From NCBI GenBank assembly GCA_020160935.1, contig JAIUPL010000006.1:1-64000 (forward strand): DNA of 64,000 nt, in the 5' to 3' direction. Positions within the stretch are counted from its first letter, which is position 1, and each line of letters starts with the position of its first letter. This document shows positions 1 through 21,846 of the stretch, piece by piece. The position numbers and the translations under genes are program-made. The DNA is from Bacteroidota bacterium (GTDB lineage Bacteria > Bacteroidota > Bacteroidia > Chitinophagales > Saprospiraceae). The notes under the pieces were generated by a model. It saw only the letters and a list, made by a program, of their open reading frames with translations, searched no databases and was not told the origin of the DNA.

Positions 1-917
1 GCATCAACAATGCCCTGATGCGCCGCGAACAAATTCGTTCGGTGAACAACGAACCGTATCGCGACTGGCTGGCGCCCATCATCGCCGACGCAGAAGCGGG
101 TTTTGGCGGCAATTTGAATGCGTACGAACTCATGAAGGATATGATCGAGGCCGGCGCGGCAGGTGTGCATTTTGAAGACCAACTTTCCTCCGCCAAAAAA
201 TGCGGCCACCTGGGCGGGAAAGTATTGGTACCTACCCGTGAGGCCATCGACAAACTGGTGGCGGCCCGACTGGCTGCCGACGTACTGGATGTGCCTACCG
301 TGCTCATCGCGCGCACGGATGCGGAAGCGGCTACACTGATTACTTCGGATATCGACGAACGCGATCGAGCATTCCTGACCGGTGAACGCACCATAGAAGG
401 TTTTTATGGCGTGCGCAACGGACTGGAAGCCTGTATTGCCCGGGGTATTTCCTATGCGCCGTATGCCGATCTGTTGTGGATGGAAACGTCTCACCCCGAT
501 CTGGGTATGGCGCGCGAATTTGCACAAGGCATCCTGAAAGAATTTCCCGGAAAAATGCTGGCATACAACTGCTCGCCGTCGTTCAACTGGGCCGCACAAA
601 TGGGTGTAAGTGAAATGGAGTCATTCCGCGAGGACCTGGCTGATATGGGTTACAAATTCCAGTTTATCACCCTGGCAGGTTTCCATGCGCTGAATACCTC
701 CATGTTCGAATTGTCGGCAGCGTATGCCGAGCGCGGCATGGCTGGTTTTTCCGAACTGCAACAACGGGAGTTCGCCCTGCAATCGAAAGGCTTTACGGCG
801 GTGAAACACCAGAACTTTGTTGGAACGGGTTATTTCGACTTTGTGCAGAATACGGTACAACAAGGTATTTCCTCTACTGTGGCCATGTCGGGCAGCACGG
901 AAGTGGAGCAGTTCTGA
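1..917 (+). CDS. aceA: Isocitrate lyase (5'-truncated by window edge)
   Basis: Cleaves isocitrate to glyoxylate and succinate, the first step of the cytoplasmic glyoxylate shunt, which allows growth on acetate and fatty acids. The reading frame is already open at the left edge (in phase from base 3), so the N-terminal part lies outside the window; about 305 residues are seen. The catalytic loop KKCGHLGGK, carrying the essential Cys, is present, as are the Mg-binding neighbourhood ADAEAGFGG, the segment NCSPSFNW and the typical C-terminal ending GSTEVEQF, close to the GSTEESQF-type end of the enterobacterial enzyme. The stop is TGA at 915-917. Downstream comes the long fold-back repeat, not a partner gene. 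The usual partner malate synthase is not in view. Assignment is firm; the exact subfamily cannot be told without the N-terminus. Confidence 0.96.
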
Positions 918-1271: not shown

Positions 1272-1286
1272 AAACAGTACCACGCT

Positions 1287-1745
1287 CTAAAACCCGTATT
1301 TCCCCACTTTTTCCGACGATTCAAGGTACACCGGCAGCGCAGCCGACCCATACCATTTGAACAACTCCGGTTCGAGCAGTTTTTGCTGAATGGCCGGGTC
1401 GCCTTCCATCAGTTGCAGGGCTTCTTCGAACGTGGTGACGTTGAGGATAAAAATGCCGCGGTAGGATTGATCGTTTTTACCCATCGGGCCTGCAACGACT
1501 AATTTGTCAATATCGACCAAATGCTGGATGTTATTCATGTGCCCTGCGAAAAGACTGTCGCGAACAGCCTTGTCGTCGATGGTAACAGGGCCTGTTTTAA
1601 GAATAACAAACACATACATTTTCATCCCGTAGTCGTCGGCGCCCAGGTTTTTGGCCAGGGTGGAGTCGTATTTGGGGTTCAATTTTTGAGAAAAACCGGC
1701 AATAGACAGGCACAGGAATGCCGGAAGAAGGAGCAATGATTTCAT
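1287..1745 (-). CDS. Secreted YciI-like (YCII domain) protein
   Basis: A 152-residue protein. The first ~19 residues form a signal peptide (MKSLLLLPAF...GFSQ), followed by a YCII/DUF1330-like ferredoxin-type fold (about residues 42-140): strand MYVFVILKTGP, a HMNNIQHLVDIDKLVVAGPM segment matching the family's His/Asp pocket, then GIFILNVTTFEEALQLMEGDPA. YCII proteins are small dimeric alpha-beta enzymes or enzyme-like proteins; few have a known reaction. An exported copy is common in Bacteroidota but its substrate is unknown. It is transcribed alone, convergent with aceA. The family call is good; function is open. Confidence 0.8.
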   Translation of the reverse strand: MKSLLLLPAFLCLSIAGFSQKLNPKYDSTLAKNLGADDYGMKMYVFVILKTGPVTIDDKAVRDSLFAGHMNNIQHLVDIDKLVVAGPMGKNDQSYRGIFILNVTTFEEALQLMEGDPAIQQKLLEPELFKWYGSAALPVYLESSEKVGKYGF

Positions 1746-1862
1746 AGCATGGAAAATTTAGACAATGCGCCAAGATAATACGATTGATGCGATTGTTTGT
1801 AACAGCGGGCAGGTGACAATTTTATTACAGTGTGTTTTCGACGGATGTTTTTTATACGGCAC

Positions 1863-1870
1863 TATTTTTG
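1863..1870 (+). promoter_or_regulatory. Bacteroidota -7 box (TATTTTTG)
   Basis: TATTTTTG fits the TAnnTTTG -7 element of the Bacteroidota primary sigma factor and lies about 95 nt before the chosen ATG of the DUF3298 lipoprotein gene. A weak -33-like TTTTCG lies 23 nt upstream. Inferred by motif only. Confidence 0.4.
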
Positions 1871-1964
1871 CCAAATATTTCATTTCCAACAAGATACCTC
1901 CGAGATTTGCCTTTCAAATTTTATTAATCCCTCATCGCCGCCGCAAACGGTTATTAAATTTTTT

Positions 1965-3482
1965 ATGCGGAATACATCCTTGCTTTTTACCTGCCTGCTG
2001 CTTACAGGTCTTGTCATTTCATGCAAAAGAAATGCACAGGACGCCTCGACGCCCGTCGTGATTCGTGAACTCATCCTGGAACATCAAAACGGAGCGGACT
2101 GCGACAAGGCCGATACCCTGGCCCGAACGGATTGTGCCCACATCTCGCTGCACTGGCCTGAGGTACAACAGGGGAGCGATGCCCTGAAAATGAGTGTTGC
2201 AAAATGGGCCGGCGCGTACCTCTGCGGTATGCTGAACCCCTCGCCGGACGGAGCGCCAACCACCAACACAAATGTAGAAGAATCTGCCCGCGCCTTTTTT
2301 GCCGAGCACCAAAAAATGGAAAAATCGGCCATGACCGGCGGATGGACGACGGAAAGTAAGTTCAAGGTGCTGCTGAACGACGGCCAATACCTCACCCTCG
2401 AAATTACAGGATTCACCTACCAGGGCGGCGCGCATGGCAGCCCTTCAGCGGCAGTTGCAACGTTTGATACCAAAACGGGTAAACAACTGACCTGGGATGA
2501 TCTGGTTGCCGACAAGGCTTCTTTCCAAAGCATGGCCGAAGAAGAGTTCCGCTACGCCCGATCCGATATTTTTCAGCCCACCGACGGCAATGAACCCTTT
2601 GAATTTGATTCGATAACGCCCTTTGCACTGGCGCAAAACTATGGCCTGGTGCAGGAAGGCATGTACATGCACTACATCCCGTACGAAGTGGGCCCGTATG
2701 CTATCGGCAATACACAAATGGTGGTGCCTTATGCAGCATGGAAATCGCTGGCAAAAGTGCCACTGCCCGCCATGGCAAACCTGAACCCCGTGAGCCGCCC
2801 GCGCCCGGCACAACCGGCTGTTGTCCCTTCCAAAACACCGGCAACGGCCACCCAACCAAAAACAACAACAAAGGCGCCCAAACAGGTGCAAAAAACAGCA
2901 GTGGCACCCAAAAAGCCTGCTCCTGCCAAACCTGCCGGCCCCACCGTCACCCTGAAACAGAACGGCGATATGCTGGTGGGCAGCAAAAAAGTAGCCGACC
3001 TCGACGCCATGCGCAAGGAATTGCAATCGCTCCTGCTGGCCTATCCGGTTATTCCGGCGACGGTGCCGCTGAACACCGTTGGACAAACGGGCATGGGTAT
3101 GCGCGCCGAAATCCGCGATATTATCCAAGAGTCCATTGCAGGCGCCAAATGGGTGCGCAAAAAAGCGGCTCTGGCCGCGCTGAATACAGCCGTAGGCAAA
3201 AAATTAGGCATGTCTACTACCCTGGAACCCGTTGTGTACAAAACCAGTGGCCAGTTTGCCTACATCAGCGCCCGACCCAAAATGGCCAACGGCGCCCCCG
3301 TCGATTACAGCCGCACCGACTTTGCCCGCGACCAATCGGCTAAATGGTTTTCCGATAACGCCATCGGACTGCTGCGGTATGAAAAAGGCGCCTGGAAGGT
3401 GTTGACGTACAGCATCGGGGTGAAACAGGCGCCGGTGAGTACGTGGGTGAAGAAGTATGGGGCGCCGAAGAGCGTGTTTTGA
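1965..3482 (+). CDS. DUF3298/DUF4163-type lipoprotein with Pro/Lys linker and extra C-terminal domain
   Basis: A 505-residue protein. I start at the ATG at 1965 rather than at an earlier in-frame codon, because the sequence then opens with a lipoprotein signal (LLLTGLVISC; lipid-modified Cys about residue 20). Residues ~30-280 match the DUF4163 plus DUF3298 architecture also found in the anti-sigma factor RsiV and in PdaC deacetylase: GAHGSPSAAVATFDTKTGK is the family's GGAHG signature, followed by the 'EFxFDSITPFAL' and 'Y..YEVGPYAIG' segments. A low-complexity Pro/Ala/Lys/Thr linker (~290-350) leads to a C-terminal domain (~355-505) I do not recognise. It probably works at the outer membrane, periplasmic side. 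It stands alone, just before the AT-rich SPARTA island. Confidence 0.8.
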   Translation: MRNTSLLFTCLLLTGLVISCKRNAQDASTPVVIRELILEHQNGADCDKADTLARTDCAHISLHWPEVQQGSDALKMSVAKWAGAYLCGMLNPSPDGAPTTNTNVEESARAFFAEHQKMEKSAMTGGWTTESKFKVLLNDGQYLTLEITGFTYQGGAHGSPSAAVATFDTKTGKQLTWDDLVADKASFQSMAEEEFRYARSDIFQPTDGNEPFEFDSITPFALAQNYGLVQEGMYMHYIPYEVGPYAIGNTQMVVPYAAWKSLAKVPLPAMANLNPVSRPRPAQPAVVPSKTPATATQPKTTTKAPKQVQKTAVAPKKPAPAKPAGPTVTLKQNGDMLVGSKKVADLDAMRKELQSLLLAYPVIPATVPLNTVGQTGMGMRAEIRDIIQESIAGAKWVRKKAALAALNTAVGKKLGMSTTLEPVVYKTSGQFAYISARPKMANGAPVDYSRTDFARDQSAKWFSDNAIGLLRYEKGAWKVLTYSIGVKQAPVSTWVKKYGAPKSVF

Positions 3483-3545
3483 GCGTTGTACGTTCCTGTT
3501 CTTTATTTTCTTTTAACCTCACACATTCATGTCTTTCTGTAAGTA

Positions 3546-5069
3546 TTATATGTAATATTTAAATGCAAGTGGCGGTGTTTTTAAGTCCGTACTGGCTGTT
3601 AATATTTCTCCAATCTTGTTGGCAAAACGAAGTGTTACCGGAACTCCGTCTGCATAGATACAAGCATTGTAATTTAATTTGGTCAACGCTAAAATATCTT
3701 TTAATACTTGTTCAATGTCGCCTTCTCCTTTATTGATTTCTATGAATATTGGATTTGGTACTTCCATTGATAAAGTTGATTCTGTCTTAGGAACATAACC
3801 AGTCGTCCATAAGAAAGCACTCTTCTCATTTACAACAAAAGCATTACCTCTCATTATTGGATAATTTCCTTCGGATTTAAACAACTTTAGCGGTTTGGTC
3901 TTTGTGATAGTTACACCCACCAAATTTGTTCCCTCTGGAGTTACTTCTTGAAACGCTTTCCATTCACGACCGTTAAATCGTGTCTTGGCATGAATGAAAA
4001 TCTCTTTGGGATATTCTCCGTTTTGTTCAGAGTACGAATGGATTGCCTGAGATAATAATGTCTTAGCCTCTTTTGGATTCAAATGAAATTCTCCTTTCTC
4101 AGGATTATACCATGGGCCAACCTCTCCTTTAAATACGGTTCCATCACCATTGTCCAAAAACATTTGAGCAGCGCAACAAGCATTTTTAGGATTTTTACTT
4201 TTTTCAATTTGCTTGTAAACCAACCCTAAATAACATACTCCTTTCCTTACATCCGATAACTTCCAAGGTTTACCGCCTGCCTTGTAAAAGGCAGCAGTAG
4301 AAACAGTCCAAGCCAAGTGACCTTCAATTTTTGAAAAGTCTCTTTTTGGTGCGCCATACTTGTTTTTAAAATCTCTCCATGCTAGAGTGCTTTCACGAAA
4401 AATTTGAGTTGGTAGTGTATATTCAAGCAGTCTTGCTTTTAATTGGTCATGAAATTGAGCATCAAAATTATATGTTTTAGATTCGATAACCTTCTCTTTA
4501 ATTTCCTGCTCTTTGTTCTCAAATATATCAAGTTGAAAAGAAATCTTCTTTGCAGTTGACTTTGTTAAAAGAGACTTTTTTTGAACCAAGTCTTTCGGTA
4601 AAACTGAATTAGGTCGACAGTATTGATAGATTTCATCTGGAACTACCACAAACCAAACATCTACGTTGTCGTCTTCGTTTTTATTGGCTGCAATTATCTT
4701 GTTTATGAATAACGTAACCAAGTCATAGGTTCGTTTATGTGTACTGTCAGTATATAAAAGTTTTCCGATTTCTTCATTGGTTACTTCTTTGAAGACCACA
4801 TCGTCTGCATCCCACTTGCAACCAAATACAGATTCAAAACCAGGAAACATTGGACGGGTAATATTATTGGCATTGTATATGGGTTTTTGAATATGTTTAA
4901 TGTAGTTTTTGAAAATATTTAACCCGCTCTGAGTTGCTACCACACCGCTTTTAATGCCATATATTTTATTAAGCGGACCAAACAGAGCAAGCCCATCTCT
5001 TGCATCTGCACATTTCTGTTCGTTTGCAAAGAGAATATTGGGTTCGGGTATGTAAATCACTTCTTTCAT
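3546..5069 (-). CDS. Short prokaryotic Argonaute (MID-PIWI), SPARTA subunit
   Basis: A 507-residue short Argonaute consisting only of MID and PIWI domains, with no PAZ. It resembles from memory, almost block for block, the Argonaute of the characterised SPARTA system of Maribacter polysiphoniae: segments such as KCADARDGLALFGPLN, RPMFPGFE, FFVVPDE-type strand VWFVVVPDEIY, FRESTLAWRDFKNKYG, AWTVSTAAFYKAGGKPWKL, and the C-terminal end FKYYI, whose terminal carboxylate lies near the guide 5'-phosphate pocket. In this family PIWI is catalytically dead: it uses an RNA guide to recognise invading (plasmid) DNA and then activates its partner TIR NADase. Its ATG overlaps the stop of the TIR-APAZ gene (ATGA at 5066-5069), so the two proteins are translationally coupled into one heterodimer. 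AT-rich compared with neighbours, fitting horizontal transfer. Confidence 0.96.
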   Translation of the reverse strand: MKEVIYIPEPNILFANEQKCADARDGLALFGPLNKIYGIKSGVVATQSGLNIFKNYIKHIQKPIYNANNITRPMFPGFESVFGCKWDADDVVFKEVTNEEIGKLLYTDSTHKRTYDLVTLFINKIIAANKNEDDNVDVWFVVVPDEIYQYCRPNSVLPKDLVQKKSLLTKSTAKKISFQLDIFENKEQEIKEKVIESKTYNFDAQFHDQLKARLLEYTLPTQIFRESTLAWRDFKNKYGAPKRDFSKIEGHLAWTVSTAAFYKAGGKPWKLSDVRKGVCYLGLVYKQIEKSKNPKNACCAAQMFLDNGDGTVFKGEVGPWYNPEKGEFHLNPKEAKTLLSQAIHSYSEQNGEYPKEIFIHAKTRFNGREWKAFQEVTPEGTNLVGVTITKTKPLKLFKSEGNYPIMRGNAFVVNEKSAFLWTTGYVPKTESTLSMEVPNPIFIEINKGEGDIEQVLKDILALTKLNYNACIYADGVPVTLRFANKIGEILTASTDLKTPPLAFKYYI

Positions 5070-6418
5070 TGTGAATCAGTTTCTTCAATCATTTCTTCAT
5101 CCATATCATCTAACAGATTGCTCTCTAAAATCTCGGCTTCATCTTCAAGTGTATTTTTCTCTGGAACGTTATAACTTACTTTCCCGATAAACTTGATTGG
5201 CTCGTTTGAAATTTGAATTTTTTCTTCACTACCAACTTCCAAATAGAAACTAGTTTCATCATCAGACAGATACTTCACAAAAGCCAACATCTTATTTCGC
5301 CAATCGTCATTCCACCAGTTTTTACCTTGCCTTCTGCGTGCGGCATGTTGAATGCTTTTGCTCTCAATAGGCGTAATTCCATCTTGTGTAAAATAAATAT
5401 GCGAAGAAACCATCAATACAGGAAAAGGGTAAAGCTTACTTGCAGCAGAAATAGCGAAATGCCAGTTTTTTCCCTTTTGCTTACCAACTAATTGAACCTT
5501 GCAGAATTTGTCCTTTTCAAGTTTCCCCTTTTCGAACCAGTAACCTACTTTGTTTGACATGGGATATTCCCTTACTCCTTTGACTTTCATTCTTAGTTCA
5601 AAAGCCTTATTAACCAACTGAACAATTAATCTTTGGCATTCGTAGTTTGCGATGAAATTAGTGTCGTAATTTCCTGAAAGAATCTCCTCAGTTGATATTC
5701 TAATGGTGTTGTTCCTGTTGTATGTTTCTGTTTGGGGCAGATGATACAAGAAATCGTACTCCCAAGCAAACGTGCAAAGATGATTTTTAAATCGAACTGC
5801 AGGAAATGTAAGTTCACGAACATCAAATCCCCTTGGGATCAGTTTATCAAAAGCATGAAACCTAAGTTCTTTTGGAAAAGACTGAATAGAGAACCAATTG
5901 GAATCATAAATTTCATCTCTTTCGATGATGCCTTTGTTATGCAAAAATATCTGCTGATATAAAGCATTGCTTATGGCCGGATTTGGGCTACAATTATTAA
6001 CCTTCTGTGTGGCCAATGCCTCCAATAAATCCTTCAAACCTGTTGCCCATGATTTTCTGAAGTCAATAGCATTTAATCGAATTATTTCGGGTGGTAAATC
6101 ATCGTAAGAAAGGTTTTCGTCAATAATTAAGGGAATGATGAAATTATCATCTTTCAATTGCTTTTTCACCTTCTCTGCAATAGCAACTTCCTTTAAAACA
6201 CCTTCCTTCTTTATAGCAATTTTAGAGGTAGCAAGTAAAAACTTAATGGCACCTTCTCTTATTTCTTTATCAATAATTTTCCAAAAATCAGCTCCTTTAT
6301 CGAGAAACAAAACATCACACCATACTTCATAGCCCAAAGCAATAAGTTTTAAGGATAACCAGTTGGTGAAGTCGTTGTCATCAGGTGCTGCATGGCTTAT
6401 AAAGATTTTGTTTCTCAT
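5066..6418 (-). CDS. TIR-APAZ effector, SPARTA subunit
   Basis: A 450-residue partner of the short Argonaute. Residues 1-~140 form a TIR domain (KIFISHAAPDDNDFTNWLS; GYEVWCDVLFLDKG; the Glu at position 77 in KEGVLKEVAIAEK falls at the same position as the catalytic E77 reported for the Maribacter enzyme). Residues ~150-420 form the APAZ domain, which replaces the missing N/PAZ lobe of Argonaute (LRFHAFDKLIPRGFDVREL, CTFAWEYDFLYHLPQTETYN, ECQRLIVQLVNKAFELRMK, HAARRRQGKNWWNDDWR). A strongly acidic tail (~425-450: DDMDEEMIEETDSQ) matches the guide-mimicking tail described for SPARTA. On guide-target binding the complexes oligomerise and the TIR domains degrade NAD(P)+, killing or stalling plasmid-bearing cells. 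First gene of the operon; hairpin element A lies directly upstream. Confidence 0.96.
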   Translation of the reverse strand: MRNKIFISHAAPDDNDFTNWLSLKLIALGYEVWCDVLFLDKGADFWKIIDKEIREGAIKFLLATSKIAIKKEGVLKEVAIAEKVKKQLKDDNFIIPLIIDENLSYDDLPPEIIRLNAIDFRKSWATGLKDLLEALATQKVNNCSPNPAISNALYQQIFLHNKGIIERDEIYDSNWFSIQSFPKELRFHAFDKLIPRGFDVRELTFPAVRFKNHLCTFAWEYDFLYHLPQTETYNRNNTIRISTEEILSGNYDTNFIANYECQRLIVQLVNKAFELRMKVKGVREYPMSNKVGYWFEKGKLEKDKFCKVQLVGKQKGKNWHFAISAASKLYPFPVLMVSSHIYFTQDGITPIESKSIQHAARRRQGKNWWNDDWRNKMLAFVKYLSDDETSFYLEVGSEEKIQISNEPIKFIGKVSYNVPEKNTLEDEAEILESNLLDDMDEEMIEETDSQ

Positions 6419-6464
6419 CTATCGTAAAGTGCTCTGTTTATGGGCGATTTTTTTATTTGCACTT

Positions 6465-6518
6465 GAACACTGCTTATGCGGCCGCGCTTAGTCGGCCCAA
6501 AAAAGCAATGCAGAGTTC
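6465..6518. repeat. Hairpin element A (attC-like)
   Basis: A 54-bp imperfect palindrome bounded by GAAC and GTTC, with inner pairs TGCTT/AAGCA and GGCCG/CGGCC around the centre CGCTTAGT. It closely resembles element B at 8393-8452 in outline and in its centre (CCGCGCTTAG then CGGC). The nested geometry with spacers and GTT at the outer end recalls integron attC sites, but the core is GTTC rather than GTTRRRY. It sits between the SPARTA start and the PIN gene. Confidence 0.6.
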
Positions 6519-6528
6519 GCTGTGTTTA

Positions 6529-6972
6529 TTATTCAAGTAAGTCGCGTAACTTGTACAGTTCGTCGGTTGTGATAAAATTAGTATAACCTTTTCTCGCAAG
6601 GCCTTTCATTAGCGCCCTGTCACCTGTCCACAATTTTATGCTCAGAAATTCTGCAAGTGTCACAAAAGCAATATCATCCATATCGATATCCCGAACGAGA
6701 TTGGCGGCTTTCACCCAATACTCGAATGGTACGAGTGCTTCATTGGTGAAAGTCAAGCAATTAGTGATCTGATATATAGATTGATCTAACTGTTCTTCAT
6801 TCATTTTGGAGAGTTCAAGCAGTATTGATCGATGCTTTTTGAGTTCCGAGCGCAATGTATCGCAGGCATGAAATTCAAGGACTCCATGTGAGTTCATAAT
6901 CAGGTCGCCAATCCTGCTTTCGGTATTCAGGACTGCGCTGAAGGCAATATTGGTATCGACGACGAATTTCAC
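6529..6972 (-). CDS. PIN-domain toxin (putative ribonuclease)
   Basis: A 147-residue PIN-fold protein, the usual toxin of VapBC-like toxin-antitoxin pairs, which cleaves RNA using Mg2+. The acidic residues expected are visible: D6 in KFVVDTNIAFSAV, the glutamate of RSELKKH, and the C-terminal acidic cluster in DIDMDDIAFVTLAEFLSIKLWTGDRAL. The start overlaps the stop of the upstream antitoxin gene by ATGA (6969-6972). It is a PIN protein of the type found widely in Bacteroidota genomes, longer than classical VapC. The RNA target cannot be read from the sequence. Confidence 0.85.
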   Translation of the reverse strand: MKFVVDTNIAFSAVLNTESRIGDLIMNSHGVLEFHACDTLRSELKKHRSILLELSKMNEEQLDQSIYQITNCLTFTNEALVPFEYWVKAANLVRDIDMDDIAFVTLAEFLSIKLWTGDRALMKGLARKGYTNFITTDELYKLRDLLE

Positions 6973-7175
6973 TCCGGTAAAAAGCGTTGTTTATTTTCTT
7001 CCCACCATTGTTTATTGGCATCACGGGCCAATTTATCCACGTCTTCCTGCTTGGCCTTGCTGTCTTTGGTGGCCTCTTTGTAAAGCAAGTAATTGATCAA
7101 ACGTTGCACACCTTCCAGGTCAACTGATGCTGGGAGGGTGATAATTATTTGGTTATCAAGCCGCTGCACTGTCAT
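6969..7175 (-). CDS. Antitoxin partner of the PIN protein
   Basis: A 68-residue protein. I use the internal ATG at 7175: upstream codons would translate the promoter/operator repeats, and the sequence MTVQRLDNQIIITLPASVD then begins a compact N-terminal beta strand-rich DNA-binding-like segment, followed by a helix (EGVQRLINYLLYKEAT) and a charged helical tail (DKLARDANKQWWEENKQRF) suitable for wrapping the toxin. No named antitoxin family is recognised with certainty. It is the first gene of the pair, overlaps the toxin by 4 nt, and probably represses its own promoter. Confidence 0.7.
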   Translation of the reverse strand: MTVQRLDNQIIITLPASVDLEGVQRLINYLLYKEATKDSKAKQEDVDKLARDANKQWWEENKQRFLPE

Positions 7176-7192
7176 TTTAAAACATTTTGATG

Positions 7193-7229
7193 CAAATATA
7201 AGCAATTCCCCAAGCAATTCCAAGCAAAT
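7193..7229 (-). promoter_or_regulatory. Autoregulated-looking promoter of the PIN TA pair
   Basis: On the minus strand TATATTTG (7200-7193) is a perfect TAnnTTTG -7 box 18 nt before the antitoxin ATG, with a TTGG -33-like element about 20 nt further up. The spacer is made of direct repeats: AAGCAATTCC at 7200-7209 and 7212-7221 and a third partial copy at 7222-7229 (plus-strand reading). Such repeats over the promoter are typical antitoxin operators. Confidence 0.55.
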
Positions 7230-7283
7230 AGTAGCGATCGCAATCTTAAGAATTTTACGCTTTCCTGAATTCTGGTCTCAGCG

Positions 7284-7529
7284 AGCGTTTGCTTCCCTAT
7301 GTGGTATGCTTACTCGCGCAAAGGCGGCTGGCGACTGTCATACAGCCCTGTGATGGGGATGACCGTCACGGAAGAACGACTGAAACAACGCGGCTTTCAC
7401 TCCTTCAAAGACTACTACCACCACGTTCGACCAAAGACGAATGCTCCATGAACCGCCGTGTACGAAGACCGTACGCACGGTGGTGTGAGAGGGCTGAGGT
7501 GGGCTTTATGGCACCTCTCCCTACTCGAT
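7284..7529 (+). mobile_element. Group II intron 3' remnant (domains V and VI)
   Basis: After the maturase remnant comes a domain V-like hairpin (about 7452-7484: ACCGCCGTG pairing with CACGGTGGT, inner TACG/CGTA and a two-base bulge), then a domain VI-like hairpin (GAGGTG with CACCTC, about 7495-7517) and the terminal CCTACTCGAT, the classical 3' end of a bacterial group II intron. The 5' half of the element is absent. The element ends only about 10 bp beyond the stop codon of the minus-strand JAMM gene, so it inserted at, or deleted up to, the end of that operon. This covers the gap between the TA promoter and the JAMM gene. Confidence 0.8.
7287..7451 (+). pseudogene. C-terminal remnant of a group II intron reverse transcriptase/maturase
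   Basis: An open frame ending in TGA at 7449-7451 encodes WYAYSRKGGWRLSYSPVMGM followed by TVTEERLKQRGFHSFKDYY. This is the usual C-terminal end of group II intron-encoded proteins (the 'RKGxWR.S.SP..' and 'LxxxGF.SL..Y' segments). Everything N-terminal to it (RT and maturase domains) is missing, so it is a 5'-truncated remnant, likely inert. It sits immediately before the intron's domain V. Confidence 0.75.
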
Positions 7530-7538
7530 TCGACGATT

Positions 7539-7970
7539 TTATTCAATTCTATATTCTATCTTTATTGGAACTGCCCCCATATTGTAAATGCTTAATCTAT
7601 TAAGCCTAACTGAATAGATAGCCCAGACTTTTAAATTAGATTTCGATGCACATAAAATATCTTTTGTGGATGGAATGTCTCGTCCTTTTGGATGCGAATG
7701 ATAACATCCACACAAACTATAGCCTAAAGACTTACACCGTTTTTGAATTAATAAAATATCTTGGTCAGAAATTAAGAACCTATTGTTTTTTTTCGATTTA
7801 TTCAAAACTGGAAAGACAACAAGGTTAATGTTCCCGTCAGATAGCCTTTGCGCCCCAATTAGACCGCATGCCTCTTTGGGAAGGTGTTTAATAGCCTCAT
7901 TGGCTATTATTTTTATTGTATCTTTTTGAAGAAATACGCCTTCGATATTCTCCAACATCATTCTCCCCAA
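7539..7970 (-). CDS. JAMM/MPN+ metalloprotease (JAB domain)
   Basis: A 143-residue single-domain JAB1/Mov34/MPN protein with a complete zinc site: E33 in PKEACGLIG, then HSHPKGRDIPSTKD giving H91, H93, S101 and D104 (the HxHx7Sx2D motif). Such bacterial enzymes remove or mature ubiquitin-like or sulfur-carrier proteins, and act in ubiquitin-like conjugation systems (Bil, type II CBASS). Here no E1, E2 or beta-grasp gene is adjacent. The gene starts inside the end of the 125-residue upstream gene (ATG at 7970 overlaps by 13 nt; a second ATG lies at 7958-7961), so the two are co-translated. The downstream side is cut short by the group II intron remnant, so further partners may have been lost. 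Confidence 0.88.
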   Translation of the reverse strand: MGRMMLENIEGVFLQKDTIKIIANEAIKHLPKEACGLIGAQRLSDGNINLVVFPVLNKSKKNNRFLISDQDILLIQKRCKSLGYSLCGCYHSHPKGRDIPSTKDILCASKSNLKVWAIYSVRLNRLSIYNMGAVPIKIEYRIE

Positions 7971-8335
7971 CCAAATATTTCCGATAATAAACCAGCGAAG
8001 AATTTCTTATCTTCCCTGATAATGTCAGTAATTTGCTTAAAGGCATCAATGATGTGCTGAATGTCGTCCCATGTATCTGCTCCTTCCAAACCTCCCTCAT
8101 TTTTAGCCATTCTAACAGTAGAAGAGCCTGACGATGACAGTTTGCTGATAAAATCAGGGTTTTCTTGGATGTATCTGGCGACCGTTCCGGTAAACACCGT
8201 GCAATGTCCTACCAGTTCATTATCCCTTTCCATGAAAATGAGTGCTTGAGCGAAAACTTGCCGAGCGAACTCTTTCTTCTCCTCATCCCATGTTGGTTTC
8301 GGAGCAAAGTCTGCGTTTTTAACTTCTTTAGCCAT
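7958..8335 (-). CDS. Small unknown protein paired with the JAMM protease
   Basis: 125 residues, no signal peptide or membrane segment, family not recognised. Composition suggests mainly helices: TWDEEKKEFARQVFAQALIF, an amphipathic middle with FTGTVARYIQENPDFISKL, a Ser/Gly-rich stretch (SSSGSS) and a second helical part (DDIQHIIDAFKQITDIIRED) ending in SEIFGWGE. It is first in a two-gene unit with the JAMM protease, overlapping it by 13 nt, so the two products probably work together: it could be a substrate, a regulator or a toxin. It lies within the hairpin-bounded defence segment. Function not inferred further. Confidence 0.7.
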   Translation of the reverse strand: MAKEVKNADFAPKPTWDEEKKEFARQVFAQALIFMERDNELVGHCTVFTGTVARYIQENPDFISKLSSSGSSTVRMAKNEGGLEGADTWDDIQHIIDAFKQITDIIREDKKFFAGLLSEIFGWGE

Positions 8336-8392
8336 TTTTTGAAAATTTAATTGTGATTTTATTTATTCATTCATTTTTATTCTTATCTCGTC

Positions 8393-8452
8393 GAACGTGA
8401 GCACTGCCTGACGTAGCCGCGCTTAGCGGCTATGATCGGCAGTGCATAGTTC
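8393..8452. repeat. Hairpin element B (attC-like)
   Basis: A 60-bp imperfect palindrome bounded by GAAC (8393) and GTTC (ends 8452), with inner arms GCACTGCC/GGCAGTGC and TAGCCGC/GCGGCTA around GCTTA. The outer heptamers GTCGAAC and GTTCTAC pair at six of seven positions. It shares its centre and plan with element A (6465-6518). Together they delimit the PIN/intron/JAMM segment. It sits just upstream of the small unknown gene and just downstream of the T9SS protein gene. Confidence 0.6.
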
Positions 8453-8460
8453 TACACATT

Positions 8461-9978
8461 TTATTTATTGACGTAAACCTTTTTTCTAATACATATTCCG
8501 CCTTCCATTTGTATTTCTACAAAATAGAATCCGGCAGTTACAAAAACCGGCACATCGATCGTGGCATCATTTCCAACGTTCGGACGCTTCAAAACCGGTT
8601 TTCCCAGAGCGTCCAGCACCGTCACCTGCACTATTTCTACCGGAGAGCGTATCGTGAAATACTTGGAGGCCGGCACCGGATAAATATCCACCTCCGGGCG
8701 CTGGTTGTCAGGAAGGGCCACTGTTGTGGACACCGACTCACAAAACAAGGTATCCACACAGCCATCGTTGGTCACTTTCACCAGCCAGGCATACTGCGTA
8801 TTACCTTCATTGGAGGAACCGCCTGCAATGATATTACCACTGCTGAGCACGCCCACGCCGGCAAAAAAGCCGCTGTTGGTATAGTACAGCGGCAGAAAAG
8901 GTGCATTGATCTTGCGCTCCCAGATACTGTCTCCGTCTGTCGAAAACTTGTACAGCCAACCTACCCGGCGGGTCGGGTCATTGCCGTCCTTCACCAGCGT
9001 TTCACCCGCGCCGATGTAATGACCATCGGGGGTGGGGGCGAAATCCCAAAGCATGATGGAGGCGCTCAAGCCGCTGATACGGCCGAAATGACGCACCCAT
9101 TCTGTCTGAAAAGTACTATTAAGTTTATAAAGAGTAGGTTGAAATAATGCAGTATTTCCGTTCATCCCAGTCTTATATACACTGAAACAAAAAATTCCGT
9201 CATCTGAAGCGTGGACAAATTTTCGGAAATAGCCAATTTCAGGATCAACTGGGGAAGACCATGAATCTATATCCATACCTTCCAAATTAAAATACAACAA
9301 TGATGCGATTCCTTGATTTGGATTTGGATTGGTTTCTGTTCCAATTCCGGCAACATAAGTTGAATCATTTAATTGATATATATCAAGAACAGCATTATTA
9401 TATCCACTAAATGTAATGGTCTTAAACCAAATGGTCTCTCCCTGTTTATCCACATACTGGATAAAACCGTCAAGGTAGTAATCGGGTCGTTGAATATCTC
9501 CATAAAGCAGATAACCATCCGGGGTTTCGAGCAGTTTGTAAAAATAGTTGCTCAGGTTTACCGTATCGGGGTATTCCTTGATAAACTCCACCTGCAGGTC
9601 GTTGGCCATTTTGATCAGAAAAGCGCTTTCCCGGCCTACCGTCGCTGCCATCGCTGCATATCCGCCGTCGGCAGTCCGGATGAGGTTGCCCCAGGCGTGA
9701 TGGGTAGCAAATTTATCTCCTGCTGAATCTAATATAAAATTGTGTGCCAGAACGTTGCCAAGGGTATCCAACTTTGCTACTACCAATCCTTGCTTCCATT
9801 CAATCTCATTGTTGAAGCCAACCCCATATCCTATAATAGTATCCTCATGCACGATCACGTGAAAAAAATCTCCCCGTGGATATGGCAGGGTTACAGCCAT
9901 ATTGGAAGCACTGTTTTGAGCATAGCCAGTATAAATGACTAACAGATGAATAATTATTAATATTTGGCACTTTGTCAT
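8461..9978 (-). CDS. Secreted T9SS-sorted protein, WD/kelch-like repeats
   Basis: A 505-residue exported protein. Signal peptide at residues 1-20 (ending GYAQ); a body of repeated strands of the 'LIRTADGGYAAMAAT', 'LLETPDGYLLYGD', 'FAPTPDGHYIGAGE' type, which suggest a beta-propeller; and a C-terminal type IX sorting domain (~430-505: VDIYPVPASKYFTI ... GKPVLKRP ... AGFYFVEIQMEGG ... KKVYVNK). It should be transported across the outer membrane by T9SS and anchored or released. Last gene of the minus-strand surface block, separated from the metalloprotease gene by a strong terminator. The middle of the gene (about 9110-9480) is visibly more AT-rich than both ends, which suggests recombination within the gene. 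Confidence 0.85.
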   Translation of the reverse strand: MTKCQILIIIHLLVIYTGYAQNSASNMAVTLPYPRGDFFHVIVHEDTIIGYGVGFNNEIEWKQGLVVAKLDTLGNVLAHNFILDSAGDKFATHHAWGNLIRTADGGYAAMAATVGRESAFLIKMANDLQVEFIKEYPDTVNLSNYFYKLLETPDGYLLYGDIQRPDYYLDGFIQYVDKQGETIWFKTITFSGYNNAVLDIYQLNDSTYVAGIGTETNPNPNQGIASLLYFNLEGMDIDSWSSPVDPEIGYFRKFVHASDDGIFCFSVYKTGMNGNTALFQPTLYKLNSTFQTEWVRHFGRISGLSASIMLWDFAPTPDGHYIGAGETLVKDGNDPTRRVGWLYKFSTDGDSIWERKINAPFLPLYYTNSGFFAGVGVLSSGNIIAGGSSNEGNTQYAWLVKVTNDGCVDTLFCESVSTTVALPDNQRPEVDIYPVPASKYFTIRSPVEIVQVTVLDALGKPVLKRPNVGNDATIDVPVFVTAGFYFVEIQMEGGICIRKKVYVNK

Positions 9979-9980
9979 GT

Positions 9981-10022
9981 CTATAAAAATATGCGGCGAT
10001 ACCGGAGCATCCGGTATCGCCG
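9981..10022 (-). terminator. Rho-independent terminator after metalloprotease gene
   Basis: Perfect 13-bp stem (GGCGATACCGGA/TCCGGTATCGCC plus a C-G closing pair, 9994-10022) with a 3-nt loop, followed in minus-strand reading by a T-rich run (ATTTTTATAG). It ends transcription of the metalloprotease gene, 17 nt after its stop. Confidence 0.85.
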
Positions 10023-10038
10023 TGTTGAAAGATGAATC

Positions 10039-13000
10039 TTAGTGGGAAATAAGCACTTTGGTGTAGCCCGTCTGCCCGTTGCAGAACCATTGTGCTACAT
10101 AAATGCCATGAGGGAAATCGCTCACCGGAATTTCCAGCAAGCCACCGGATGCAGGCAGTTGCAGTGTATGCCTGAGCCGGCCCTGAAGGTCGAACAAGCG
10201 TACATTCCCTTCCAAACGACTCACCGGATATTCGATGCGCAGCAGGTCGTTAGCAGGGTTAGGGTACACTTTCAGGTTTTGCGGCCCGTTCCTTACCGTT
10301 CTCGTTTGTTTTTCCGGCATCGACCGGAGTTGCGTTTCCGAACAGTCCGGGCTTTGCTCCACACCGTTGCGGCGCAGGATCACCTCGGATAAAAAACCGG
10401 CCTCATCGCACTGGTTCGTGTATCTTCGGAGTGTACCCAACAGATCATCCGGCAAGGCGTTCAAAAGCGCTCCTTTTTGTTCCAAATGGGTACGCAATGC
10501 GCTGTACACGTAACCCAACCGTTCGATCTCGTCCTGCCGCTTCCCATCGAGCACGTATCTTACGGGGATTTGGCCCCAGAGCGTATCAAAAAGATCAAAC
10601 GCGCCTGTGAAAAAATAATGACGCGCCAGGCGCAGGTCGGCCGGATAAGTGTACACTAATCCCAGCCACCGAACGATGGAATCGGTCTGCACATGCAGGG
10701 TGTCCAGGCTGTATTGTGTCAGAATGCGGTTGGCATCCCGGTTCATAGCGATGCGCAGGCCTTTTATGGCCTCAGCCTCTGCTGCTTGTTGTACAGGGTT
10801 GGTAATGGTATCGAATGCAGCGGTTTTGATGTGCCACTGCTGGCGGTTTTGTCCAAACCGCGTTTTCCAGGTCTCCACCTCGGTGGTTGGGCAGAGGAAA
10901 CAAGGCTCAGGGTCGGCGCAATTGCTGTTGGGCTGTGTGGTTGGAAATTCATCAAATCCCCTTACATCACAAGCGTTATTCGGGTCGCCCGGCGTCCCCG
11001 GATCCTGCGCCGGATCGTCTTCGTAGAAGTAATAATTGATTTCAAGGCCATCATTCACGATGGTACACCAGATGTCTGTCGGAGAGCCGGAAAAGATGTT
11101 GCCTGCGGCAAGAATATTGGGAGCTTGTGGGGTAATCTCACCTTGCGTTTGTCTGATACTTCCATTGATGATATGGAAGTCACCGCCGAGGTTTTCCTTA
11201 TTGGAATTGCACAGATAAAGCAGGCCGTCCTGCTCGTAACCATTGAATCCGGAAGCCCGATTGCCGGTAGTGAGATTGGAATACTGGTTTTTGACAATGG
11301 TATTACTCATGCCTTCTTCCAGCGCGATACAGTCTGTCCCGATGCGCGTTTCAGCAAATAAATCCACGCCATCGAAATAAAAGTCATTTCCGGACACAGA
11401 AAATCCGGTTGTCATACCCCTGATCTCAATGCCTTTTGCAAAAGAAGAAGAACACGCATCCGGTTTTGCCACCGAAAAATCATTTCCTATGACAACGAAA
11501 CTTCCAGATGAGATCAATTCCATTTCTTTCTGACAAGCAACGAAGTTGGAAGCGGAAACGGAAAGCGAACCGTTGGTTTCGGTTAGTTTGTCCGCTCGTA
11601 TGCCACGAAAGAGTTGCTCAAAATGATTAGAAAGCGAGAGCCTGAAACCAGCGTTCCAGGAATCTATACCGATTGCACGGGATGCAGTTAGCGGACAATC
11701 GGTACGCATATCTTCAAAACGAGACAACCGTATGCTCAGACCTTTAATAGCGTCTAATTTGAGCAGGATGGGTTGCTGACTACCGCCTCTATAGTTATCC
11801 GTTATAGAAAATGTGGGGCCGGCAAAACTGCTGTGGTTCTGAAAATAGTACTCTCCAAAACGGACGCCGATGATATTGTCTCTTATCTGAGCATTATTCC
11901 AAAGGCGGACAATTCCTCCTCCTGTACTCGTTCCGTTGTTGGGAGCAGATAAGTCCTGAACATCGATACCACATTTGGCATGTTCAATGACGCCACCGTT
12001 TACCACATCCACCTGCCCTCGATAGGCGAGGGACTGGTCGGGGTCAAACGCGTCGCCTTCTACCACAATACCCTGCCACATTTCATCGCAGTAGGCGGTG
12101 ATAGTGGAGGCGACTCTTAGTTTTGCTCCTTTTTTCACCCGAATGGTTGCTCCCGGCAGCATTTGCAAGGGTGAAGTAATGTTTAGTTGCCCCGATTCAA
12201 CAACAATGCTTCCCGAAACGCCGGAGGGAGTTGAAGAGGGATATCTTACATCAGGTATGTGGATGCTTTGAAGTACGGATGCGAGCGCAATATGGACGCG
12301 CATGCGCATGACTTGTTCAGGGGAAAATCTGTCTCGACATTGTGCCGGTTCGGCATAAGACATATAGTTCCTGAAAACTTCCTCCGGTAGCCCCGGCGGG
12401 TCAATAGATTCTTCACAATTAGAACTAACTGTGATACTCTGCGGAGAAATAGGGGTATCGCAAACATAATCGCCACAGCAATAGCAATCAGGCTGCCCAT
12501 TCTGACACAGCGCTCCGGTTTCCACACACTCTCCAGGGCCAGGATCTGACCCGGCAAATGTATGATATAAGCCGAGGCAGTGCCCCACTTCATGTACTAC
12601 TATCGCCGAGTGGCTGGCTGGTATGCCAGGATAGGAACCTACCACTTCACAATAAGGGCCGGGAGTCGTATTGGCATAACCTGCCGCCGGGCCATCATCG
12701 CCCCGGTCGAATATATCCAGGGCATTTTCGTGTATGTGATAAGGGGTAAAATTAGATTCGGTAATCACCTGAAAAGCAACATCGCAGGGATCTTCCAGGC
12801 CAATAAAATAAATATCGTGTGGATTGTATGCCGCATTCAATCTATCGATGATGCCGGCAGTTCTGGTGGGTAGATTTACCGAACTCGTCCACTGCTGGTT
12901 GGGGCCGGATGATTGCACGTAATTGACGAAGACCCGGATGTATTGGGGACCTCCGATTTTAGCAAAAGCATCTTCATAAGGGCCTTGTATTTCGGAAGTT

Positions 13001-13071
13001 TGCCCCGTCAAACTATTGATAAAATTGAAGGCGAGAATTGAAAAAAGCGCCCGGTAAATAAGAGTTTTCAT
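10039..13071 (-). CDS. Secreted M43-like (pappalysin-type) metalloprotease with beta-helix and T9SS sorting domain
   Basis: A 1010-residue exported protease. Start at the ATG at 13071, where a signal peptide begins (MKTLIYRALFSILAFNFINSLTGQ); earlier codons would run through intergenic hairpins. Zinc motif HEVGHCLGLYH at residues 160-170 is the metzincin HExxHxxGxxH, and the Cys-rich stretch CYCCGDYVCDTP plus the Met-turn NYMSY (about 270) fit the pappalysin/M43 family. Residues ~310-680 look like a right-handed beta-helix (repeated short strands with N/G turns). The C-terminus (~930-1010: LKVYPNPANDLLRIEYP ... GIYVAQWFCNGQTGYTKVLI) is a T9SS type A sorting domain. Likely a cell-surface or released protease for degrading proteins outside the cell. 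Confidence 0.9.
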   Translation of the reverse strand: MKTLIYRALFSILAFNFINSLTGQTSEIQGPYEDAFAKIGGPQYIRVFVNYVQSSGPNQQWTSSVNLPTRTAGIIDRLNAAYNPHDIYFIGLEDPCDVAFQVITESNFTPYHIHENALDIFDRGDDGPAAGYANTTPGPYCEVVGSYPGIPASHSAIVVHEVGHCLGLYHTFAGSDPGPGECVETGALCQNGQPDCYCCGDYVCDTPISPQSITVSSNCEESIDPPGLPEEVFRNYMSYAEPAQCRDRFSPEQVMRMRVHIALASVLQSIHIPDVRYPSSTPSGVSGSIVVESGQLNITSPLQMLPGATIRVKKGAKLRVASTITAYCDEMWQGIVVEGDAFDPDQSLAYRGQVDVVNGGVIEHAKCGIDVQDLSAPNNGTSTGGGIVRLWNNAQIRDNIIGVRFGEYYFQNHSSFAGPTFSITDNYRGGSQQPILLKLDAIKGLSIRLSRFEDMRTDCPLTASRAIGIDSWNAGFRLSLSNHFEQLFRGIRADKLTETNGSLSVSASNFVACQKEMELISSGSFVVIGNDFSVAKPDACSSSFAKGIEIRGMTTGFSVSGNDFYFDGVDLFAETRIGTDCIALEEGMSNTIVKNQYSNLTTGNRASGFNGYEQDGLLYLCNSNKENLGGDFHIINGSIRQTQGEITPQAPNILAAGNIFSGSPTDIWCTIVNDGLEINYYFYEDDPAQDPGTPGDPNNACDVRGFDEFPTTQPNSNCADPEPCFLCPTTEVETWKTRFGQNRQQWHIKTAAFDTITNPVQQAAEAEAIKGLRIAMNRDANRILTQYSLDTLHVQTDSIVRWLGLVYTYPADLRLARHYFFTGAFDLFDTLWGQIPVRYVLDGKRQDEIERLGYVYSALRTHLEQKGALLNALPDDLLGTLRRYTNQCDEAGFLSEVILRRNGVEQSPDCSETQLRSMPEKQTRTVRNGPQNLKVYPNPANDLLRIEYPVSRLEGNVRLFDLQGRLRHTLQLPASGGLLEIPVSDFPHGIYVAQWFCNGQTGYTKVLISH

Positions 13072-13100
13072 ACGTATATGATTTTTGTTATTGTGTAGAA

Positions 13101-13150
13101 CGTCGGCACACCTGCCCGTGCCGACGCTTAGGAGGCATGGACAGGTGTGC
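13101..13150 (-). promoter_or_regulatory. Two mutually exclusive hairpins between genes
   Basis: CGTCGGCAC (13101-13109) pairs with GTGCCGACG (13118-13126). The alternative GCACACCTG (13106-13114) pairs with CAGGTGTGC (13142-13150). They share bases, so only one can form, an arrangement like an attenuator. It lies between the 177-residue gene and the metalloprotease gene in the direction of transcription. Function inferred only. Confidence 0.45.
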
Positions 13151-13165
13151 ATTGATGGCGGCGTA

Positions 13166-13699
13166 TTATTCAATCACCAAATCCCAAATTTTTATATACT
13201 TTCCAGATTTAATTTTTATCTTGTATTTTCCCTTAGGCTTTTCGGAGAAATCAAGCATGATTTGCGCATTTGAAGCAAGAACCGAAAAAGTAGTTTCCTC
13301 TTTTTCATTCAATATTTCTACAACACCATCTGTACTTTGTGATACTTTCTCATTCAAGTATAGTGTAAGATGTGCAAGATGTTTATTTGCCACGACGGAA
13401 ACACCATACCCTTTCTGGAAATCTATGATTTCTTGCGAAGATTGGGCTTGGACAACAGAAGTAGTATCCCATTTTAGTAGGATAGGAGCCGATAGGCTTG
13501 TGTTTTCTGAGTTAGCGTTAGTAATTTCAGATGCAGGGATGATTGCTTCTCTTTTTGATGTGCCTGAACTACCGCCACCGCCTGACGATACCGCCTTAGT
13601 GAGACGGTTGCCAGACTGGTCATAAGAGAAACCGTAAGTTTGAGAATAACTCAATAAACTTACAAAATTTAAGCCAATGAAAAACAGCAATTCTTTCAT
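13166..13699 (-). CDS. Small secreted protein with one YD motif and T9SS-like C-terminus
   Basis: 177 residues: signal peptide (~1-19, ending SYSQ), a single YD/RHS-type motif right after it (YGFSYDQSGNRL), a Gly/Ser linker, and a C-terminal ~75 residues with the strand pattern of a T9SS type A sorting domain (GVSVVANKHLAHLTLYLNE ... KGKYKIKIKSGKYIKIWDL). It follows the large RHS gene in the same direction with a 34-nt gap, so it is probably co-expressed. It may help anchor or present the RHS protein; an immunity role is possible but it carries an export signal. Not a recognised family. Confidence 0.75.
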   Translation of the reverse strand: MKELLFFIGLNFVSLLSYSQTYGFSYDQSGNRLTKAVSSGGGGSSGTSKREAIIPASEITNANSENTSLSAPILLKWDTTSVVQAQSSQEIIDFQKGYGVSVVANKHLAHLTLYLNEKVSQSTDGVVEILNEKEETTFSVLASNAQIMLDFSEKPKGKYKIKIKSGKYIKIWDLVIE

Positions 13700-13733
13700 T
13701 TTGCATATTTTTTAAATAAACTGATTATTTGTG

Positions 13734-19970: not shown

Positions 19971-19987
19971 GACTGATATTTATAGGT

Positions 19988-20013
19988 TAATAATAATGCC
20001 TTAAACAGGCATT
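19988..20013 (-). terminator. Possible weak terminator after fibre-like gene
   Basis: AATGCC (19995-20000) pairs with GGCATT (20008-20013), followed in minus-strand reading by ATTATTATTA. It is short and the tail is not pure T, so read-through into the RHS gene is likely. Confidence 0.35.
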
Positions 20014-20014
20014 G

Positions 20015-21340: not shown

Positions 21341-21460
21341 TTTTTGTATTTTTATTTTATTTATTTTTGGTTGCCGCCATCTCTGGTTTGCCGTCAACTC
21401 TATCTATATGCTTCTCTATTGCGTCAAATTCCGCTTTGTCACCTCAGTATCAGTACATGC

Positions 21461-21503
21461 CAGTTGCGTCAAGATAACCAACCAGGTTAGCTTGACGCAA
21501 CTG
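21461..21503. repeat. 18-bp-arm inverted repeat in long intergenic region
   Basis: CAGTTGCGTCAAG (from 21461) pairs with CTTGACGCAACTG (to 21503), and the inner TAACC/GGTTA extends the stem with one mismatch around a 5-nt loop. It lies about 120 bp upstream of the fibre gene start. Could be an operator, a small RNA stem or a mobile repeat; nothing else is coded in this stretch. Confidence 0.65.
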
Positions 21504-21673
21504 CTCAATCGACACATTGTAGGGGACATCAGGTTCATGGACAGGAGGTTTAACAATGTAAATGTAGGATAAGGTCTCAAATTTCCAAATCATCTAGCGG
21601 ACTTTTTATTCGGTCCCAACTAATTTTTTGCCTCGTCAGGTCTGCCAAACTTTCTTGCTAACCCATCCTTATC

Positions 21674-21773
21674 GCCGCAGCAGTGTCTCCAACATGCTGC
21701 AATCGTACAGCACGATTTTTGAATCCACATGGTAACAATTATACATGCAGCAGGTCAGAGACACTGCTGCGGC
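21674..21773. repeat. Inverted-repeat element (15-bp arms), MITE-like
   Basis: GCCGCAGCAGTGTCT (21674-21688) is exactly the reverse complement of 21759-21773. Between the arms two ACATGC(T/A)GC-type motifs and a TGCAGCA motif occur. Together with the hairpin at 21461 this is the only structure seen in the ~500-bp gap 21341-21846; no gene was found there. Confidence 0.65.
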
Positions 21774-21846
21774 TTCGGGCTTGGCTTTGAGATGGACATG
21801 CAGCAACACAAAAGCCTTGCTTCTTTAAAGGAGAAAGCAATAAAAA

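What the first reader, a model, noticed from the sequence alone, without database searches (positions are those of the whole stretch)
3546..6418. Complete SPARTA (short Argonaute plus TIR-APAZ) NAD-depleting defence operon
Seen: TIR-APAZ (450 aa) and MID-PIWI Argonaute (507 aa) overlap by ATGA, with catalytic Glu at TIR position 77, an acidic APAZ tail and the YYI Argonaute C-terminus. Known: this pairing is the SPARTA system, which senses plasmid DNA by RNA guides and depletes NAD(P)+. Inferred: it is a recent acquisition, because its AT-rich composition contrasts with neighbours. It is very close from memory to the Maribacter polysiphoniae system, so likely functional.
Basis: partly seen in the sequence, partly recalled or inferred. 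Interest (0 to 1): 0.75.

Follow-up and report, generated by a model that had tools for sequence, protein, structure and literature searches.

The report
Ordinary intact SPARTA defence operon
This bacterium carries a complete, intact-looking copy of SPARTA, an already well-studied immune system that senses invading DNA with a guide RNA and kills the cell by destroying its NAD; it is one more member of a known family, sitting in a variable patch of the chromosome.

Summary
TIR-APAZ (450 aa) and a short MID-PIWI Argonaute (507 aa) overlap by ATGA and match solved SPARTA complexes over their whole length. Glu77, Trp46, Tyr105, Arg114, the guide pocket (His207, Lys211, Asn468, Ile507) and sensor-loop Trp320 are present; the PIWI catalytic acids are absent, as in SPARTA. 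Best reading: a canonical RNA-guided, DNA-activated NAD(P)ase acting by abortive infection. Two corrections. The closest solved system is not Maribacter polysiphoniae (70% and 77% identical) but the pair of 8qlo/8qlp (82% and 86%). 'Recent acquisition' is partly shown: the Argonaute is in 1 of 42 genus genomes and an 18.4-kb segment holding the operon is missing at the same site in a congener, but the nearest relatives found are about 80% identical in DNA, with near-saturated synonymous change. Against full equivalence with Maribacter: Ala at TIR position 11, where alanine impaired the Maribacter enzyme; the 8qlo pair has it too. New member of a known kind; low interest.

The parts
5066..6418 (-). 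TIR-APAZ gene (450 aa): NAD(P)ase TIR domain about 1-138, linker 139-160, APAZ about 161-420, acidic C-terminal tail
   Evidence: phmmer to 8qlo_A E=1.1e-256 and to 8fex_A E=2.3e-217; PADLOC Aga_TIR-PNTD1-PNTD2 E=5.4e-138; Pfam TIR_2; domain limits of the Crenotalea protein from PMC11156904
3546..5069 (-). short prokaryotic Argonaute gene (507 aa), MID 1-269 and PIWI 270-507, PIWI without the catalytic acids
   Evidence: phmmer to 8qlo_B E=0 and 8fex_B E=1e-282; PADLOC pAgo_I E=1.2e-194; residues
5066..5069 (-). ATGA overlap: stop of TIR-APAZ and start of Argonaute; suggests one translationally coupled operon
   Evidence: ORF coordinates and sequence
6188..6190 (-). codon of catalytic Glu77 of the TIR domain
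   Evidence: Glu in 14 of 14 aligned TIR-APAZ sequences
4437..4451 (-). codons for His207 to Lys211, guide 5'-phosphate pocket of the MID domain
   Evidence: His and Lys in 16 of 16 Argonautes aligned; role from PMC11156904
3487..21852 (.). variable segment that holds the operon, absent from the same site in a congener (G028/L040), where about 0.95 kb of other DNA lies
   Evidence: blastn: window 3-913, 1285-3486, 21853-22420 and 22571-28685 collinear with L040 at 82-86% DNA identity, nothing of 3487-21852 found

Best explanation
A complete two-gene SPARTA system. In the resting cell the two proteins form a 1:1 heterodimer. The Argonaute is loaded with a 5'-phosphorylated small RNA; pairing with complementary single-stranded DNA of an invader (plasmid in the published work) moves the PIWI sensor loop and unmasks a dimerisation surface, four heterodimers assemble, and the paired TIR domains hydrolyse NAD(P)+ with Glu77. 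The cell dies and the invader does not spread. Shown here: gene pair, overlap, full-length homology, presence of most residues tied to each step. Inferred from studied relatives: complex formation, RNA guide, DNA trigger, tetramer, NAD(P) loss, expression in this host.
For: Full-length matches of both subunits to solved SPARTA chains and PADLOC class I models. TIR-APAZ: all 13 Crenotalea positions tested are identical (W46, E77, Y105, R114, N116 and 8 APAZ nucleic-acid contacts), and of the 13 distinct Maribacter positions tested 9 are identical (F45, W46, E77, Y105, G42, D44, R54, R114, and Y154/L159 of the bridging helix make 10 with both counted; see the Against line for the 4 that differ). 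Argonaute: 25 of 31 Crenotalea positions tested are identical, among them the guide pocket (Y148, H207, K211, N468, I507), R243, D306, D309, K314, K504; Maribacter sensor-loop W320 is kept. The positions of the lost catalytic acids are V284, F328, K362, N484. Argonaute dN/dS is 0.024, 0.045 and 0.042 against L001, L002 and L003, rough because dS is 1.6-2.0. In 16 of 16 loci compared (one search's 17 loci less the fragments L014, L016, L017, plus L042 and the window) TIR-APAZ lies directly upstream of the Argonaute; it is cut by the contig end in L015 and interrupted in L042. Mechanism from PMC11156904 (introduction, and results and discussion read) and PMC10474274 (results read).
Against: Four Maribacter TIR positions differ: T11 is Ala here, I110 is Pro, D111 is Glu, V113 is Ile. 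PMC10474274 reports that alanine at T11 impaired NAD+ hydrolysis and that I110G/V113G and D111A weakened activity and assembly. Six Crenotalea Argonaute positions differ: Q35K (a Q35A/Y37A mutant lost activity), E133D, E134D, K287Q, Y328F, R362K. A11, P110, K35 and Q287 are shared by L001, L002 and L003, and L003 equals the 8qlo pair. dN/dS could not be computed for TIR-APAZ (synonymous sites saturated). No expression or activity data.
Confidence: 0.95

Rival explanations
1. A SPARTA complex that has drifted to weak or altered TIR chemistry (A11, P110), for example lower NADase activity or another substrate or product preference.
For: A11 replaces the Thr whose Ala mutant is impaired in M. polysiphoniae, and P110/E111/I113 lie in the interstrand interface.
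Against: The catalytic Glu and the aromatic residues are intact; the same A11 and P110 occur in the 8qlo/8qlp pair, present in two entries with five chains of each protein, which fits one heterodimer plus one tetramer (inference; entry titles and paper not seen).
Confidence: 0.08
2. The operon is a non-expressed passenger of a variable patch and confers nothing in this host.
For: AT-rich genes beside 50-54% G+C flanks, single occurrence among 42 genus genomes, a group II intron remnant nearby. The sigma-70 scan of 3400-7300 finds no excess of promoter-like sites (13 against 10.8 in shuffles), though that scan is not made for Bacteroidota promoters (recalled), so it has little weight.
Against: Both frames are open and the key residues conserved; low Argonaute dN/dS, which speaks for the lineage and not for this host in particular. 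An interrupted copy does exist elsewhere (G146/L042), so decay is visible where it happens.
Confidence: 0.1
3. Some other short-Ago class (SPARSA, SPARDA) or a TIR defence unrelated to Argonaute (Thoeris).
For: Weak matches of the TIR half to ThsB and Thoeris type III models (13.7-17.4 bits), and of the Argonaute to a SIR2-fused pAgo model (96 bits).
Against: Against 459 bits for the TIR-APAZ model and 646 for pAgo_I; domain order and both whole proteins match SPARTA.
Confidence: 0.01

Closest known systems
SPARTA protein pair of PDB 8qlo/8qlp (identical to L003, a MAG contig labelled Bacillales bacterium Bu78)
   Same: Same gene order and lengths (450 and 507 in L003; the deposited TIR-APAZ chain has 452); A11, P110, K35 and Q287 shared; 369/449 and 435/507 identical residues
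   Different: Differs most in the Argonaute stretch 161-200 (50% identity), the TIR-APAZ linker (73%) and the C-terminal tail (52%)
MapSPARTA, Maribacter polysiphoniae (L009)
   Same: Same architecture; 315/450 and 391/507 identical; E77, F45, W46, Y105, R114 and the guide pocket kept
   Different: T11 to A, I110 to P, D111 to E, V113 to I; Map has an XRE-type regulator gene directly upstream of TIR-APAZ, no homologue of it was found near the window's operon
CrtSPARTA, Crenotalea (now Thermoflavifilum) thermophila (L010)
   Same: Same lengths (450 and 507), 300/450 and 393/507 identical; the only other one of 16 aligned Argonautes with Asn at 484
   Different: Q35 to K, E133 and E134 to D, K287 to Q, Y328 to F, R362 to K in the Argonaute
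Flavobacteriales MAG CROMO_A_74 (L001), uncharacterised
   Same: Nearest Argonaute found, 469/507 identical, stretch 161-200 also close (85%)
   Different: TIR-APAZ only 372/445; Y105 is F there

Membership tests
SPARTA | TIR-APAZ and short pAgo encoded as neighbouring genes in one operon | tested here: met
   ATGA overlap, same strand; co-transcription itself not tested
SPARTA | Whole-length homology of both subunits to characterised SPARTA proteins | tested here: met
SPARTA | Catalytic Glu of TIR NADases (Glu77) and active-site aromatics | tested here: met
   E77, F45, W46, Y105; position 11 is Ala instead of Thr, as in the 8qlo pair
SPARTA | Short Argonaute: MID and PIWI only, PIWI catalytic acids missing | tested here: met
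   507 aa aligned end to end; V284, F328, K362, N484 at the four positions (positions)
SPARTA | Guide 5'-phosphate pocket and C-terminal Ile coordinating the metal | tested here: met
   Y148, H207, K211, N468, I507
SPARTA | Surfaces for Argonaute dimerisation and TIR tetramerisation | tested here: inconclusive
   Kept: Ago Y37, K130, N131, K314, K504, D306, D309; TIR G42, D44, R54, R114, N116. Changed: Ago 35, 133, 134; TIR 110, 111, 113. Assembly itself cannot be tested here
SPARTA | RNA-guided, ssDNA-triggered NAD(P)+ hydrolysis and abortive infection | not testable with these tools
   needs biochemistry
Thoeris / SPARSA / SPARDA | ThsA partner, or SIR2- or nuclease-APAZ partner | tested here: not met
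   the partner is TIR-APAZ; the other models score far lower

The most novel reading that the evidence does not exclude
The lineage of the window, L001, L002 and the 8qlo pair, which carries Ala11 and Pro110 in the TIR domain and Lys35 in the Argonaute dimer interface, could be a functional subtype of SPARTA with retuned NADase activity or assembly threshold. Alanine at position 11 weakens the Maribacter enzyme, so compensation or a different product is possible.
Probability: 0.08. Interest if true: 0.35.

Novelty: new member of a known kind. Interest (0 to 1): 0.12.

Why it matters
It adds an intact SPARTA to a genus in which the 41 other genomes searched show no relative of its Argonaute (29 of the 42 are at least 90% complete and at most 5% contaminated), and shows that it occupies a variable chromosomal segment. 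For the field this is an extra sequence, useful mainly as a natural test of TIR position 11 and of the fast-changing Argonaute insert, not a new mechanism.

Tried and rejected
Pfam Piwi (PF02171) finds nothing in the genome at E<=0.001, and Pfam finds no family in the Argonaute. I take this as a sensitivity limit of those models, since phmmer and PADLOC match strongly, and rejected it as evidence against an Argonaute. NCBIfam has no model that fits either protein.

A third component: all-against-all comparison of neighbouring frames of 70 codons or more within about 6 kb in 16 loci. The clusters that include the window are only the two genes and frames or antisense frames inside them. Recurrent neighbours elsewhere: an XRE-type regulator in 8 of 16 loci (L004-L009, L013, L042), directly upstream of TIR-APAZ in 4 (L006-L009; only the L009 protein was scanned with Pfam, HTH_3); a long frame of about 1,540-1,670 codons in 4 (L006, L008, L009, L015); a 168-173-codon frame in 3 (L006, L008, L009); a 128-152-codon frame in 3 (L001, L002, L042); and long shared flanks of L008, L009 and L015. 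Several contigs are short, so these are lower bounds. Beyond the regulator they were not identified.

A mobile element carrying the operon: no integrase or transposase was recognised among the 14 window proteins given to Pfam (not every frame was scanned). No direct repeats bound the segment among the 20 largest of 48 families shown. The 30-bp 3' end of the flank gene that is repeated in G028 occurs once in the window and once in the own genome. The scan of viral contigs found no relative (11 pattern matches, 0 confirmed); that scan reaches close relatives only. Plasmid records hold only distant relatives (101 of 72,556, all below 60% identity).

More empty sites: the flank gene matches in 37 of 60 genomes, but apart from the own genome only G028 is close (89% identity; next G020 at 57-59%), and the G020 stretch aligns with the window only inside that gene, so one congener informs the site. 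A search with the protein at 10039-13173 matched 42 of 42 genus genomes through widespread domains and told nothing about the site.

Literature: searches by entry code and by a recalled system name listed no paper on 8qlo/8qlp (20 of 6,505 listed, 10 of 248 listed), so absence is not shown and its biochemistry was not seen. Koopal and colleagues 2022 was not fetched and is known here only through PMC11156904. No structure prediction was run, because solved structures at 82-86% identity exist.

Full report
What is there. On the minus strand, 5066-6418 encodes a 450-aa TIR-APAZ protein and 3546-5069 a 507-aa short Argonaute; the stop of the first and the start of the second share ATGA. phmmer against PDB sequences matches TIR-APAZ to 8qlo_A at E=1.1e-256 and the Argonaute to 8qlo_B at E=0, followed by other SPARTA entries (8fex, 8ifk, 8j7s and others), end to end or nearly so. 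PADLOC names them Aga_TIR-PNTD1-PNTD2 (E=5.4e-138) and pAgo_I (E=1.2e-194).

Are the working parts intact? I aligned 14 TIR-APAZ and 16 Argonaute sequences: the window, L001-L013, and for the Argonaute also L015 and L042. The fragments L014, L016 and L017 were left out, and for TIR-APAZ also the contig-cut L015 and the interrupted L042. Residue roles are those given for the Crenotalea complex in PMC11156904 (introduction, and results and discussion read) and for the Maribacter complex in PMC10474274 (results read). In TIR-APAZ all 13 Crenotalea positions tested are identical, 8 of them APAZ nucleic-acid contacts. Of 14 Maribacter positions tested (E77, F45, W46, Y105, G42, D44, R54, R114, Y154, L159, T11, I110, D111, V113), 10 are identical and T11A, I110P, D111E and V113I differ. 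In the Argonaute 25 of 31 Crenotalea positions are identical, among them the guide pocket (Y148, H207, K211, N468, I507), R243, the masking D306 and D309 and the pocket lysines K314 and K504; Q35K, E133D, E134D, K287Q, Y328F and R362K differ. Maribacter W320 of the sensor loop is kept. The four positions of the lost catalytic acids hold V284, F328, K362 and N484.

The departure that matters most is A11, because PMC10474274 reports that alanine at this position impaired NAD+ hydrolysis. The same alanine is in L001, L002 and L003, and L003 is letter for letter the 8qlo pair over the residues compared (449/449 and 507/507). I have not seen activity data for that pair. (The tally in Best explanation counts the same 14 Maribacter positions: 10 identical, 4 different.)

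Closest relatives. Identity of the window to others, TIR-APAZ then Argonaute: L001 Flavobacteriales MAG 83.6 and 92.5%; L002 Flavobacterium fontis 84.4 and 88.4%; L003 (8qlo pair) 82.2 and 85.8%; L009 Maribacter polysiphoniae 70.0 and 77.1%; L010 Thermoflavifilum (Crenotalea) thermophilum 66.7 and 77.5%; L012 Acidobacteriota MAG 52.5 and 70.8% (synonymy of Crenotalea). The pattern scan behind these loci is not exhaustive. The 'Bacillales' label of L003 rests on a 4.8-kb MAG contig and may be a binning error. The Argonaute stretch 161-200, within the MID region where PMC11156904 places insert57 (overlap inferred), changes fastest: 42.5% and 50% identity to L002 and L003 against 86-93% for the other stretches, but 85% to L001.

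Where it sits. The genome is a 5.84-Mb assembly in 51 contigs. The Argonaute has one match in the own genome and is found in 1 of 42 genus genomes. Of 149 genomes of relatives 6 match, own included; only G146 (86%) and G109 (78%) are close, the other three at 28-31%. Of 395 class genomes, own included, 14 match TIR-APAZ at E<=0.001: close and full length besides the own one are G366 (74%) and G109 (67%); close but partial are G189 (84% over 272-450) and G418 (65% over 1-141); the rest are distant (28-37%), several through the TIR domain alone.

The site. In congener G028 the window's 3-913, 1285-3486, 21853-22420 and 22571-28685 are collinear at 82-86% DNA identity, while 3487-21852 is missing and about 0.95 kb of other DNA takes its place. 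The Argonaute's stop codon (3546) faces the flank gene's stop (3482) at a distance of 63 bp, so the operon lies at the edge of a variable segment. That segment also holds a PIN-domain gene with a small upstream partner, a JAB-domain gene, two proteins with T9SS-type sorting tails and a 2078-aa Rhs/SpvB-like protein.

How recent? G+C is 35.8% in both genes against 54% in the flank gene and 50% in 21847-64000, and the operon is sporadic, which fits horizontal acquisition. But the nearest relatives found are about 80% identical in DNA (L001 and L002), with Argonaute dS of 1.6-2.0 and TIR-APAZ synonymous sites saturated, so no sampled genome is a recent donor. With one congener aligned at the site, gain against loss is not formally polarised; absence from 41 other congeners favours gain.

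How it works. The published cycle applies with high probability: inactive heterodimer, 5'-phosphorylated RNA guide, ssDNA target, movement of the sensor loop, Argonaute dimers and TIR tetramer, hydrolysis of NAD(P)+, abortive infection. The sequence shows the parts; every biochemical step is inferred from relatives at 67-86% identity.

Verdict. A genuine, probably functional SPARTA system; a new member of a known kind, with no feature that would much surprise a specialist.

Noticed in passing
window 7451-7529 (+): Rfam match to the 3' end of a group II intron (RF00029, 40.4 bits, cut-off 40) between the PIN pair and the JAB gene; Pfam recognised nothing in two neighbouring frames (7289-7600 and 7093-7350), so it looks like a remnant.
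   Followed up: partly
window 6529-7223 (-): PIN_2-domain protein (147 aa) preceded by an 84-aa protein with a 4-bp overlap, 110 bp upstream of the SPARTA operon; has the look of a toxin-antitoxin pair.
   Followed up: partly
window 7539-8335 (-): Prok-JAB metalloprotease-like protein (143 aa) overlapping a 125-aa protein with no confident Pfam, PADLOC or NCBIfam match; PADLOC scores of the JAB protein are weak.
   Followed up: partly
L040 7940-7969 and 8890-8919: In congener G028 the 3' end of the flank gene (30 bp) is repeated on the far side of the 0.95-kb DNA that replaces the window's segment, as if the gene's 3' end were an insertion or recombination site; the window has only one copy.
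   Followed up: partly
L042 13839-16422: In G146 (same order) the TIR-APAZ gene next to an open Argonaute frame is interrupted by about 1.3 kb that encodes two frames resembling an IS3-type transposase (family recalled, not searched).
   Followed up: partly
L004-L009, L013, L042: An XRE-type HTH regulator gene lies near SPARTA in 8 of 16 loci and directly upstream of TIR-APAZ in 4, including M. polysiphoniae; no homologue lies near the window's operon.
   Followed up: partly
L050 1580-4499: On a Rhizobium brockwellii plasmid a distant short Argonaute is annotated as two overlapping hypothetical proteins behind a TIR-domain protein, so that copy may be split.
   Followed up: no
window 3546-5069, Argonaute residues 161-200: This stretch changes far faster than the rest of the Argonaute, except towards L001.
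   Followed up: no
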